DNA from: Microvelia longipes
Lineage: Eukaryota > Arthropoda > Insecta > Hemiptera > Veliidae
NCBI GenBank assembly: GCA_018340805.1
Contig: JACMZG010000008.1
Coordinates: 21,108,722 to 21,172,721, forward strand
Direction: 5' to 3'
Length of the DNA stretch: 64,000 nt
Shown here: positions 40,901-46,900 of the stretch, piece by piece
Layout of the letters: every line of letters begins with the position of its first letter
Position numbering within the stretch: position 1 is the stretch's first letter
Notes under the pieces: model-generated
Databases searched by the model: none
What the model was told of the DNA's origin: nothing
Seen by the model: the letters and a program-made list of their open reading frames with translations, nothing else
Program-made: the position numbers and the translations under genes

Positions 40901-43900
40901 ATGTTGGCGTCACACACTATTATTTGGGCAAATTTAAACCTGAGTTAATGCTTATCTTTAAATAATCCAGAAAAAATTGAGTTACTGGTAACAATGGTAC
41001 CGCTCAATTTATATAGCATAAACGGGAAACTTAAGCAAAAAATTGGACTTTTAAGCACGAAAGCATACATATTTCAAAGGGAATTCGCCCGGTAAGCGGA
41101 CCTCCGATCCAGAATAATTTTGAAGTTATGAACTTATGTCATAAAAATTATGAAAAAAATATCAATAAAAATAACGAAGAACAATTATCGATCTACCAAA
41201 ATTTGAATCTGGATGCGTAGTATTAAGTTCTTTGAAAGTTAGAGATGCTAAAACGTGGATATTTCTCAGTCCTACTTTATTTAAAAATAAAGTAGGTGTT
41301 GTATTTTAGTAAATTCTCATCTCACCATGATTGGTTACGAGGTGTTTTTTTTACAATGTTTTCCCTCTAATATGGTACTTTACGCTCAGAAGAAGTGCGA
41401 TGTCATGGTATGGTGGCGTTTGGCGTTCTTTGCGCATTGTTTGTTATTTTGTGTTATCGTTATCATTTATTACCTGGTTTTTTCCTAGAATATAGCAAAT
41501 TTTTATCTCACGCAAAATGACACCTATTAATAGGTAAAATATATATATGAAACTTAACGCCACATAAGATGGTCTGTTGAGCTAAAACCATTTCCAGTCG
41601 ATCAGATTTGTCAGGTGCTTGTGCTGTTTGATTGTATGTTGTTATGCTACCTAAAAAATTAGTCAATATTTTGTTAGGTGCTTTGCTGTTTGATTGTTTG
41701 TTGGTATGATACCTATAAAATGAGTCAATTGTTTTATCAGGTGCTTGTGCTGTTTGTGCTGTATGTTGCTATGATACCTATAAAATGAGTCAAAATTTTG
41801 TATGTGCTTGGCTGTTTGATTGTGTGTTGCTATGATACCTAAAAAATGAGTCAATATTTGTCAGGTGCTTGTGCTGTTTGATTGTGTGTTGCTATGATAC
41901 CAATAAAATGAGTCAATATTTTGTATGTGCTTGGCTGTTTGATTGTATGTTGCTACGATACCTATAAAATGAGTCAATATTTTGTCAGGTGCTTGATCTG
42001 TAAAAATTTATGTCGGTATAATACCTATAAACTCTGGTAGCTATAAGAGCGTCAGCTACACCCATCCTGTCATCTCTCATCCTGGACTCCTGAATGCAGA
42101 ACTCAGTCTCTCTGCTAGATAGCTGACCTATCATACCCGTCCAGTTACCTCTTCCTATTTCAAACCCATAGCTATCTGCTTTCTTATAATTAAAGCTAAA
42201 CAAAATATTGATTTATATTTTAGGGGATCACTATTTTTACTTTTCTTTCCTTACCTCTGACAGGAAAAATATTTTTCTTAATATAACATATAACTAAATT
42301 TTAGGGATTGATATGAAAAATGTGGACACGATAGTATACAGAAACTTGACATTTATAGAGTCACATTACTTAGGCATACTAACTTGACGTTTATAGAGTC
42401 TAGTTCATTACTTATGTCTACTAACTTGACATTTATAGAGTCTAGTACATTACTTATGCATACTATCTTGACATTTATAGAGTCTAGTACATTACTTATG
42501 CATACTTACTTGACATTTATAGAGTCTAGTACATTACTTATGCATACTAACATATGCATACTAACTTGACATTTAGTATATCTCCTAAGCCTATTATTTG
42601 ACATTATAGTATATTATTTATCTATATACTTATTGACAATAAAGCATATTTGTTATTTCTACTTACTTATACATTATAGTATATAACTTGTTCTTACTTA
42701 CTTAACATTATAGTACTCCTTAAAATGTTGAAATAATGTAATGAGAGATCTGGTATGTGCGGGTGTGCCAGGTTGGTAGAACTGGTCAGCCCATATTTCA
42801 TAGTGCTCTCTATCATCATGCTTTACTCCTATGAACTGAGAACAAATGATTATTTGGCATATTTTGCTGACAATTGAGTATAAATGAAATCTTTTATCTT
42901 ACATTTATAAATTTGTTAACTTATTGAGTTGACATAAATAACTTTCAATCATATTATGTATATGGTATAATAACGTATAATTATAATAATGTATAATAAT
43001 GTGCATCATACATGCATTGTGTCTTCAGACTAGCTTTAATAGTCTTCAAGCAGTAAACAAAATCCGTTTTAATTCCCGCGGTCACCCATCCACGCACTGA
43101 ACTCACATGATCCTGTTAACCCTATTGTTCCGACAAAAACCTTATACATAAACGTATAGAAATAACTTTATTTACTCACGGCAATAAAATTATGCATTGT
43201 TAAACTAATTCAATCTGCAAAATGATGTTTTCCTAATTATTTTATAACATACCAAAAAAGAATAAGGAAAATGGATTGTGTAGACAGTTTGGAATTAAAA
43301 CAGCTGTAAACTTATCGTGTAATAATATATATTTATATGATATATTTTAATTTACATTGTATTTAAAAAATATTCCATATTTAAAAATGATAAATATAGA
43401 AAAAGATTATTAAAATTTACCTGATTCGGCCTCGCCTCGTCAATAAAGTGTAATTTAACTGACTCGGCTTCGCTTCATCAGTTAAATTTTACGTTTACAG
43501 CCTAGGCTTCACCACTGCTGTATTTGTTAGCTGTCTTCGCCTTGGGATAGGAACTAAATAAAAAAAAACTAGTCTACAAAACTCCATATTGCAACCTAGT
43601 TACATAAATAAATATATATTGAGGTGATTTTACTTATTTACTTACTGCAAAGCTGATGTTAAGAGAAAATCCATCAAAATTATTCCTCTTACTGTTTACT
43701 CTCTTTTTCATATAAGTATCTTCTTCATTTACCATCGCTACTTTGTTAACTAGTAAAGGAGCTTTGTAATGAACTTTATACACATCGTAGACAGAGTAAG
43801 TTTGGTCTGGATATGCGATCAATATGATTACTTTGGCGTTTATTGTTATGTTTAGCTTTGATAAAATATTAGTGACGTGGCTTAGTGACCCTGACTGTAT

Positions 43901-46900
43901 AAACCAGTAGTGTCTTGAAAATTGTAAGTGAAATGAACTCTGGAAAATATAAATAGAAAATAGTTGAAAGCAAGTAAGGAATGAAAGAAAATTTTTGAGT
44001 TCTGTAAAACTCAGTTTTGCTGAGGCCGCGAATCATCCAGGGGACGAGGCCCCAAAGCAGCCTGGGAACGAGGCCCCTGTTTTTATTTAATCCTATTTAT
44101 TTTAATTTTTGTGTGCTTCATTTTACCTTCTTGTGTGTTCCTTTAAGTATTTTTGTAGGTACATGAAAAATATACTACTTAATTATTGCAAATAATATTA
44201 AAGGAAAATGTTTCCATTAATTACTTATTACTTTATTAATTACTTAAAATTATTTATTACTCATAAAATTTATTTTCATTTATATTTAATACACATTATT
44301 ATTATATTTTATAAAAGTCATACTAATTAATATATTCCAACATATTTAATTATTTATTCCATTATATATATATATATATATATATATATATATATATATA
44401 TATATATATATATTATATATATTATATATATATATATATATATATATATATATTATATATAATATATATATATAAGATATAAATAAATCAGCTTCATGAT
44501 ATAATAATTGAAAGAATCAGGATAAGGCTAAGAAAACACACTTACTTCCCTTGTGCCGACGTCGGCACAAGGGAAGTAAGTGTGAACAACAACACATGTA
44601 ATAATGTAAAATGTAATAACACATGTAATATTTTAAATGGGGCATGTGATAAAATAAATGCTTTTTAAATAGGGTTACTAAAAAGCATTTTTAGCACTTT
44701 TTTTTAAAAAAAAGGAAAATGTACTAAAATAGCTACAATCATCATTTCTTAAAAATTGTTGAAAATAGGTTTAATTTTTTATTGATAAGGATGTTTTTAA
44801 ATTGTAGAAACGCGCAATTAATGGTGGCGGAAAGCAGGAATAGGTGAAACAGTGGAAAGAAAAGATGAAGTTTAAATTTCCTCCACGACAAAGAAGAAGG
44901 AGTAAATTTCATTAGCTCCCGAGGCCGACAGGGTGAAGATGATAAACTAATTAGCTCCTGGGGCTTACTGCATGAGGTAGTAGAAAATTATACTACTTAA
45001 TTATACTATATTATTTGTAAATTATACTAAAGGAAAATATACTAAAGTAGTCAAAATCTTTTATCTCTTTGTATTTTACAATGTATCCATAACTAGTGAT
45101 ACTACAAGATAATATTAGTTACAAATAATTATTTGAAAACACTGAAAAAAGAGAATAAGAGCTAATGAGTTGCCACAAAATGTCCAATTGATTACCTTCG
45201 ACTCATCTTGGTCCCTTTTACTTAACTTATAAATGACCTGACTTGGACTGTTTCTTTTGATAACATTTTAATTATTTTATTTGTATTAGTACTTTATGAC
45301 AGCAATAAATTACTTCGTGTTTAATTGTACATTTATACGATTGTATAATTGTACAATTGTATAATTATACAATTGCTTACTTTTGCCTACTATAGCCTTT
45401 TGCTCTCTTTTGCGGGGCACAGAGTGCTTAATTAAAAGTTATGATACAAAAGTAGTTTAGTTTTCTTAAAGTAATAAGAAAGGTCTGGTTTAGTATTCTC
45501 TTAAAGTAATGAGACAAACCTGTTTTAGTATTCTCTTAAAGTAATGAGGCAAACCTGTTTTAGTATTCTCTTAAAGTAATAACCTTTTAGTATTCTCTTA
45601 AAGTAATGAGACAAACCTGTTTTAGTATTCTCTTAAAGTAATGAGGCAAACCTGTTTTAGTATTCTCTTAAAGTAATGAGACAAACCTGTTTTAGTATCT
45701 CTTAAAGTAAAAGAAAAACCTGTTTTAGTATTCTCTTAAAGTAATGAGGCAAACCTGTTTTAGTATTCTCTTAAAGTATGAGGCAAACCTGTTTTAGTAT
45801 TCTCTTAAAGTAATGAGGCAAACCTGTTTTAGTATTCTCTTAAAGTAATGAGGTTCTCCAAAATAGTCTCTTAAAGTAATGACAAACCTGTTTTAGTATT
45901 CTCTTAAAGTAATGAGACAAACCTGTTTTAGTATCTCTTAAAGTAATGAGACAAACCTCTCTTAAAGTAATGAGGCAAACCTGTTTTAGTATTCTCTTAA
46001 AGTAATGAGGCAAACCTGTTTTAGTATTCTCTTAAAGTAACCTGTTTTAGTATTCTCTTAGTTCTGTTTAGTATTCTTTAAAGTAATGAGACAACCTGTT
46101 TTAGTATTCTCTTAAAGTAATGAGACAAACCTGTTTTAGTATTCTCTTAAAGTAATGAGACAAACCTGTTTTTAGTATTCTCTTAAGTAATGAGGCAAAC
46201 CTGTTTTAGTATTCTCTGTATTAACGTGCTTATTTTAAAATATTGAGAAACCCCTGGTTAAGTATTCTCAAAGCTCTAAAATAAAATAATCAGACAAAAC
46301 TAATTTAGTTTTTTAACATGCTTAGTAAAAGCAATAATAAAAATCTGGTTTAGTATTCTCTTAAAGTAATGAGACAATTCTGGTTCTGTATTCTCAAAGT
46401 TCTTAATTTTAATGAATAAGACAAACCTGTTGCAGTATTATCAAAGCTTCTGTACATCTTATGTCTATATAAATAGCTCCTGGTGTTAAACGGTCAAATT
46501 TAATCGTATTTGAACTGTTGTCTTTTATTTTATTATTAGTGTTAATTTTTAGATATTTAGATAAATGAAGAACACCTCTCGCTCTTCCATGCATATTCAA
46601 AGCATCTAAAAACATAAGATAATTTTTTGTTTTTCATTTTATTTAAAAAATCTTTCTACCTCTTTCGTTTACTGCATAAAGAAAAAGTATTGTGTTTATT
46701 TCATAATTATCATTCATTTTATGCTCTTTTATGACGTATCATGCTGTCTGTCAGTGAGTGTGTATGTATTTGTGAGTCTATATCACGCATAACTTCCGTT
46801 GTGTTTATTCTACAGAGTTGTAATTTTAGTGTAAAATGGCTAAAGCCGCCCATATTTCATCCGTGGCGTTGCCATATCGCAGCCACAGCTTCGCGGGCCT

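What the first reader, a model, noticed from the sequence alone, without database searches (positions are those of the whole stretch)
41606..46426. Three introns of one receptor gene each begin with a minisatellite built on that exon's own 5' splice site
Read on the receptor strand, introns 2, 4 and 5 hold unrelated arrays of about 35, 42 and 62 bp. In all three the repeat unit is in register with the exon-intron border. Intron 2: exon end CTGCAACAG|GTTTGTCT against units CTAAAACAG|GTTTGTCT (about 18 copies). Intron 4: ATAATGTTAA|GTAAGTAAG against ATAAATGTCAA|GTAAGTATG or GTTAGTATG. Intron 5: GTTTATAG|GTATTATA against TTTTATAG|GTATCATA. The proximal units are the most diverged and lead step by step from the true donor into the regular array. 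Three independent arrays with the same anchoring are hard to attribute to chance. They would give each intron many donor copies, with possible effects such as U1 binding, shifting donor use or stepwise splicing. They may also reveal a mechanism that duplicates sequence at transcribed donors.
Basis: seen in the sequence. Interest (0 to 1): 0.85.

Follow-up and report, generated by a model that had tools for sequence, protein, structure and literature searches.

The report
Minisatellites grown from exon-intron junctions
In this insect genome short DNA segments that straddle the end of an exon and the start of the next intron have been copied many times in a row, so that an intron can begin with a train of copies of its own splice site; similar structures are known from amphioxus and human genes, and they raise the testable question of how splicing keeps choosing the right copy.

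Summary
In an IR75-like ionotropic receptor gene, introns 2, 4 and 5 begin with minisatellites that reach 20, 12 and 7 nt back into the exon, donor GT in register. Exon ends are phase-coherent; that of exon 5, and more weakly exon 4, also has glutamate-receptor homology. The structure recurs in this genome: 2 of 72 donors not picked for arrays carry it, both in P450 genes, where the exonic heme motif (GPRICIG) itself is repeated in the intron. Two more cases came up by inspection (IR25a-like and IR8a-like loci). The P450 cases fix the direction: junction segments were copied into the intron. This matches amphioxus 'mirages'; human genes also have tandem repeats at exon-intron boundaries, and IFI6 uses repeat units as donors. 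Nothing here shows that the copies work as donors: the donor core is not clearly better conserved than the rest of the unit (worse in intron 2), read-through soon meets stops, and intron 4 units lack the AG needed for recursive splicing. Best reading: tandem duplications across the junction, amplified as minisatellites and tolerated because the first donor is used. A donor-specific mutational bias is only weakly supported (2 of 12 arrays, 0.23 expected, P 0.02).

The parts
46427..46605 (-). exon 2 of the IR75-like receptor gene, ends ACTGCAACAG|
   Evidence: phase-coherent with exons 1 and 3; lies inside the stretch matched to Pfam IR75A_N, but exon 3 alone carries that score and exons 1-2 alone match nothing
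45435..46446 (-). intron 2 array, 35-bp unit GTTTGTCTCATTACTTTAAGAGAATACTAAAACAG; regular part 45435-46217, degenerate copies 46218-46446 including 20 nt of exon 2
43646..43939 (-). exon 3 (intron 3 has no array)
   Evidence: Pfam IR75A_N 3.7e-08 on this exon alone
42702..42835 (-). exon 4, ends ATAATGTTAA|
   Evidence: phase; coordinates of weak glutamate receptor matches (delta-2, kainate 4, NMDA 3A) run across the exon 4/5 junction (those alignments not seen)
42344..42713 (-). intron 4 array, 42-bp unit GTAAGTATGCATAAGTAATGTACTAGACTCTATAAATGTCAA, begins 12 nt inside exon 4
42025..42195 (-). exon 5, ends GTTTATAG|
   Evidence: phase; gapless alignment to GluD1 across the exon 5/6 junction
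41607..42031 (-). intron 5 array, 62/63-bp unit GTATCATAGCAACATACAATCAAACAGCACAAGCACCTGACAAAATATTGACTCATTTTATAG, begins 7 nt inside exon 5
40359..40567 (-). exon 6 (intron 6 has no array)
37929..48417 (-). receptor gene as modelled (8 exons, 536 residues, 5' and 3' ends not settled; the exon 8 donor may lie one base further on): exons 48417-48276, 46605-46427, 43939-43646, 42835-42702, 42195-42025, 40567-40359, 39694-39486, 38200-37929
   Evidence: Pfam IR75A_N 5.2e-08; GluD1 3.1e-08

Best explanation
Each array began as a tandem duplication of a short segment that straddled the exon-intron junction (exon tail plus intron head). The duplicate lies inside the intron, so the coding sequence is unchanged as long as the splicing machinery uses the first, exon-proximal donor. 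The duplicate then expanded and was homogenised like any minisatellite, with the outermost copies left behind and diverging. The copies are passengers: tolerated rather than selected. Shown: anatomy, register, exon-to-intron direction (in the P450 loci), recurrence in the genome, no clear extra constraint on the donor core of the copies. Inferred: use of the first donor, neutrality, and the expansion mechanism (slippage or unequal exchange).
For: Register and extent at the three donors. P450 loci: L060 repeats 49 exonic nt that encode a P450 heme-binding motif together with the donor and about 66-74 intronic nt, 8 full units at 93% mean identity; L029 repeats 21 exonic nt (GPRICIG) plus 6 intronic nt, 9 full units at 87% (the motif is recalled, the profile match is). 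Their echo scores of 55 and 44 compare with a maximum of 16 in 400 cross-intron comparisons and of 18 in 222. L008, an IR25a-like exon ending YPYPCR, is followed by 6 full 18-bp units that start at the donor (found by inspection). Edge copies are diverged and inner copies alike, as reported for amphioxus mirages (PMC3087553, passages). Donor core not clearly more conserved than the rest of the unit. Read-through meets a stop 16, 2 and 38 nt into introns 2, 4 and 5, so products from downstream copies would be truncated.
Against: No RNA data: use of the first donor is not shown. In introns 4 and 5 the donor core changes slightly less than the rest (12/86 against 57/307; 4/63 against 31/366), and both GT bases are kept in all 14 cells of intron 5. 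Arrays at donors are somewhat more frequent than random placement predicts in the P450 sample (2 of 12, 0.23 expected, P 0.02), which leaves room for a donor-specific bias. In intron 5 the exon overlap is only 7 nt and could be a short chance repeat that seeded an otherwise intronic duplication. In human paralogues tandem repeats at exon-intron boundaries often have support for alternative transcripts (PMC2812944, passages), so use of copies is a real possibility.
Confidence: 0.75

Rival explanations
1. Donor-specific duplication: something about a transcribed 5' splice site (RNA-DNA hybrid, U1-bound nascent RNA, polymerase pausing, or the donor consensus acting as microhomology with a cryptic donor downstream) makes the junction a hotspot for tandem duplication.
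For: Three junction arrays in one gene (post hoc). In the P450 sample 2 of 12 arrays (3 or more copies, period 17 or more) span the donor where 0.23 are expected, P 0.023, and none of the other 10 lies at the donor. IR25a-like and IR8a-like loci add two more, found by inspection.
Against: Small numbers; 70 of 72 donors not picked for arrays have none. A rate of 2 in 72 per donor would by itself give three or more in an 8-donor gene about once in 950 genes if donors are independent (my arithmetic), so the trio needs no special cause. Selection against arrays in other places (exons, acceptors) could give the same excess.
Confidence: 0.2
2. The copies are functional: many donors in a row recruit U1, shift donor use, or serve stepwise (recursive) splicing.
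For: Intact copies keep donor-like cores close in strength to the true one (U1 matches of 9: intron 2 true 7, 16 copies 6-7; intron 4 true 7, 5 copies 5-8; intron 5 true 5, 6 copies 4-5, which counts only copies that fit a search motif). In human IFI6 two downstream repeat units are used as donors (PMC4526556, passage).
Against: No clear extra conservation of the core. Intron 4 units end CAA|GT, so they cannot be acceptor-donor points. Stops shortly after the junction in all three introns. No RNA structure in six folds, three junctions and three unit pairs (z-scores -0.83 to 1.27).
Confidence: 0.1
3. An intronic minisatellite came first and its edge was later taken up as the exon end (donor capture), so the exon tail derives from the array.
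For: Exon overlap in the receptor is short (20, 12, 7 nt), and exon-only similarity is weak.
Against: The exon 5 end lies within a gapless alignment to GluD1, and in L060 and L029 the repeated exonic part is the conserved P450 heme motif, so the exon is the source there.
Confidence: 0.04
4. Assembly or sequencing artefact.
For: L017 (IR8a-like) has a frame shift in the exon copy next to its array.
Against: Units share patterned variants (for example T or C at +6 in intron 2), edges and centres differ as in real minisatellites, and the units of the three receptor introns are unrelated.
Confidence: 0.03

Closest known systems
Amphioxus 'mirages' (Adh3, troponin C, globins BflGb6 and BflGb9, PGBD5)
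   Same: Minisatellite-like tandem repeats that span an exon-intron boundary, with AG/GT signals repeated in many units and edge units left out of homogenisation (PMC3087553 and PMC3902484, passages).
   Different: Here in an insect, three in one gene and at donors; amphioxus cases include acceptor-side arrays and have RT-PCR support for normal splicing. One acceptor-side candidate here (L017).
[quoted passage not shown]
   Same: A minisatellite whose repeat units serve as donors (title in reference lists; passage in PMC4526556; the original paper is not held).
   Different: In IFI6 two downstream units are really used in coding isoforms; here read-through meets stops and use is untested.
Variable internal tandem repeats at exon-intron boundaries of human genes in segmental duplications
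   Same: Minisatellites (about 30-bp units) that lie at exon-intron boundaries; 27 intron modifications listed (PMC2812944, passages).
   Different: There the repeats turn part of an exon into a new intron or alternative transcript; here existing introns grow from their donor end with the exon unchanged.
Intron gain by tandem duplication of AG|GT-containing segments (Rogers model)
   Same: The starting event, a tandem duplication across an AG|GT, is the same (discussed in PMC3087553).
   Different: No new intron is made here.

Membership tests
mirage (junction-spanning minisatellite) | tandem repeats span an exon-intron boundary | tested here: met
   receptor introns 2, 4, 5; L029, L060, L008
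mirage (junction-spanning minisatellite) | unit holds both exonic and intronic sequence | tested here: met
   7 to 49 exonic nt; strongest in L060 and L029, short in receptor intron 5
mirage (junction-spanning minisatellite) | edge units excluded from homogenisation | tested here: met
   unit-by-unit alignment, (clear in introns 2 and 4, mild in 5)
mirage (junction-spanning minisatellite) | regular splicing is not disturbed | not testable with these tools
   no RNA data
mirage (junction-spanning minisatellite) | copy number varies between alleles or cells | not testable with these tools
   one assembly, no reads
IFI6-type multiple-donor minisatellite | downstream repeat units are used as donors | not testable with these tools
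   no RNA data; stops follow the junction in all three introns
recursive splicing point | AG|GT at the site (acceptor and donor together) | tested here: not met
   intron 4 units read CAA|GT; units of introns 2 and 5 do read AG|GT, so it fails as a shared role only
introner or other mobile element | same sequence at many unrelated sites | tested here: inconclusive
   within the window only short weak matches of the intron 5 unit, and none at E 1 for units 2 and 4; the genome-wide DNA search of the intron 2 unit did not complete

The most novel reading that the evidence does not exclude
In this lineage transcribed 5' splice sites are hotspots for tandem duplication, so that donor trains are continually born at intron starts genome-wide; splicing tolerates them by choosing the first donor, which makes the genome a natural experiment on donor choice and a source of intron growth and of new introns.
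Probability: 0.15. Interest if true: 0.85.

Novelty: new member of a known kind. Interest (0 to 1): 0.5.

Why it matters
In my literature searches junction-spanning minisatellites turned up in amphioxus and in human genes (IFI6; paralogues in segmental duplications). The listings of ten full-text searches of an open-access library (passages of only eight papers were opened) showed no insect case. If a few per cent of donors in an insect genome carry them (2 of 72 here, so the true rate is loosely bounded), introns can grow from their own 5' ends, and each case is a ready-made test of how the spliceosome picks one donor among many near-identical ones. They also put copies of coding exon ends inside introns, which can mislead gene annotation.

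Tried and rejected
Recursive splicing as the common function: rejected because intron 4 units lack AG. RNA structure: no signal. Protein homologues by large-scale search: no match at E 0.001 among 7994 scored candidates. Exon-only similarity in the receptor: weak (shuffled exons do as well in 4%, 55% and 15% of trials). An echo matrix over 14 donors of the window put introns 2 and 4 above most others but did not separate intron 5 with a 24-nt flank; short introns let the scan run into the next exon, and IR8 was set one base off; the full-unit test did separate it. Weaker own-intron echoes that I did not count as arrays: L045 (14, reached by 1% of the null) and L015_8382 (12, 1.7%). Duplications at 62503-62634 and 50686-50820 were read and not tied to exons. 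tRNA and Rfam scans of the window were empty. Genome-wide pattern count of tight donor pairs: not completed.
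Full report
What was checked. The gene on the minus strand at about 37.9-48.4 kb was rebuilt from eight phase-coherent exons. Its 536-residue product matches Pfam IR75A_N (5.2e-08) and glutamate receptor delta-1 (3.1e-08), so it is an ionotropic receptor related to IR75 (that IR75 is an insect family is recalled). 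The exon 5 end falls inside a gapless stretch of the alignment to delta-1. For the exon 4 end I have only the coordinates of weak matches that run across it. The exon 2 end rests on phase and position; exon 3 alone carries the IR75A_N score.

Three arrays of 35, 42 and 62 bp begin at the donors of introns 2, 4 and 5. Wrap-around alignment shows the donor GT in register and the first unit reaching 12 and 7 nt into exons 4 and 5. In intron 2 the regular array starts 209 nt downstream, and degenerate copies link it to the donor, whose flank from -20 to +18 aligns in register. With the donor core left out, the true donors rank 7th, 1st and 1st of 6446 GT sites against their own units (6th, 1st and 15th of 6456 with a shorter flank). 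Exon sequence alone is weak evidence here. For introns 1, 3, 6, 7 and 8 of this gene and six donors of an SR-protein gene on the plus strand, no row sits at the donor (read by eye; for the SR exons). In the echo matrix one SR donor has a higher value in its own intron (12) than in the others (11 at most), which I put down to RS-coding repeats in the next exon.

It is not peculiar to this gene. The whole-genome search answered twice, after many busy replies. From the ionotropic glutamate receptor search (30 exon matches in a 665-Mb genome) I took 195 kb. A repeat scan of it led by inspection to two junction arrays. L008: an IR25a-like exon ending YPYPCR is followed at once by six full 18-bp units. 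L017: an IR8a-like exon is followed by a long array whose unit reads WFCMTSLTPQ and then GTAAA, and preceded by an array that resembles the exon's own start (17 of 20 columns, reached by 0.05% of shuffles) (the IR25a and IR8a motifs are recalled). The L017 exon copy is out of frame, so that locus is decayed or badly assembled. Other arrays were not traced to exons.

For a sample not picked for arrays I used P450 exons whose profile match ends at positions 413-429, next to the conserved Cys-X-Gly donor (92 matches listed, 92 of 341 candidates scored). I took 58 of them in ranking order, and 2 exons with another end. Of the 58, 50 had the donor in the form first sought, 5 in a variant form and 3 not at all. 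Two of these 55 carry junction arrays: L029 (21 exonic nt, 9 full units) and L060 (49 exonic nt, 8 full units). Their echo scores are 44 and 55, against at most 16 in 400 cross-intron comparisons. The next best, L045, scores 14. Some of these genes are recent duplicates (L022/L023 and L055/L058 look alike at the junction), so the donors are not all independent. None of 17 iGluR donors read off (8 of its 25 matches showed no donor) and none of the 5 variant P450 donors scores above the null maximum of 15 (best 12, reached by 1.7% of the null). Altogether 2 of 72 donors. Because the repeated exonic part in L029 and L060 is the conserved heme motif, the copying ran from the junction into the intron.

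Is the donor preferred? In 37 P450 loci (79,792 bases) there are 12 arrays of three or more copies and period 17 or more; 2 span the donor, 0.23 expected if a unit were placed at random, P 0.023. None of the other 10 lies at the donor. This is a weak excess on two cases.

Do the copies do anything? The donor core of the copies does not stand out: 34/207 changed cells against 36/597 in the rest for intron 2 (core rank 31 of 35 rotations, that is, among the least conserved), 12/86 against 57/307 in intron 4 (rank 9 of 42), 4/63 against 31/366 in intron 5 (rank 19 of 63); cells are not independent. Copies that fit a donor motif have about the U1 complementarity of the true donor, as expected for copies. 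Extended exons would meet a stop 16, 2 and 38 nt past the junction. Intron 4 units have no AG before GT, so recursive splicing cannot be the shared role. No RNA structure stands out.

Comparison with the literature. [quoted passage not shown] PMC3902484, passages). Human IFI6 uses two downstream repeat units as donors (PMC4526556, passage; the 1995 paper seen only as a reference). In human segmental duplications minisatellites at exon-intron boundaries underlie 27 intron modifications, often with alternative transcripts (PMC2812944, passages). The structure here meets the anatomical features of mirages that I could test; splicing and instability could not be tested. The listings of ten searches of the open-access library did not show an insect case.

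Conclusion. These are mirage-type minisatellites in an insect: tandem duplications across the exon-intron junction, amplified and tolerated, most likely because the first donor is used and the rest is removed with the intron. A specific duplication mechanism at donors remains possible and is testable with a genome-wide count, which I could not run.

Noticed in passing
L017:5155-5773 and 5898-7696: IR8a-like exon with arrays on both sides; the upstream array resembles the exon's own start (acceptor-side), and the exon copy itself is out of frame while array units spell WFCMTSLTPQ.
   Followed up: partly
L060 (oriented) 793-1876 and L029 (oriented) 839-1109: P450 heme-motif exon ends repeated 8-9 times inside the following intron; could mislead gene annotation.
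   Followed up: yes
L005:2825-3705, L019:5714-6581, L019:7386-8796: A dispersed minisatellite family (about 53 bp, GCTCGCTTCGCTCGCTAGATTG-like) in arrays at unrelated loci and in both orientations.
   Followed up: no
window 62503-62634: Two-copy 65-bp duplication (minus strand) with TTATCAG|GTACGT in one copy, beside a stretch that looks tRNA-like by eye; ARAGORN and Rfam report nothing.
   Followed up: partly
window about 46990-47540: Imperfect inverted repeat in intron 1 of the receptor gene, seen by eye; looks like a small inverted-repeat transposon.
   Followed up: no
window 3251-22600, plus strand: SR-protein gene (RRM and RS exons, SRSF6/B52-like by recalled motifs) with introns of up to about 6 kb; no array at its donors.
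   Followed up: partly
window 43626-43645: Intron 3 of the receptor starts GTAAGTAAATAAGTAAAATC, an 8-bp two-copy repeat at the donor; perhaps chance, perhaps a beginning array.
   Followed up: no
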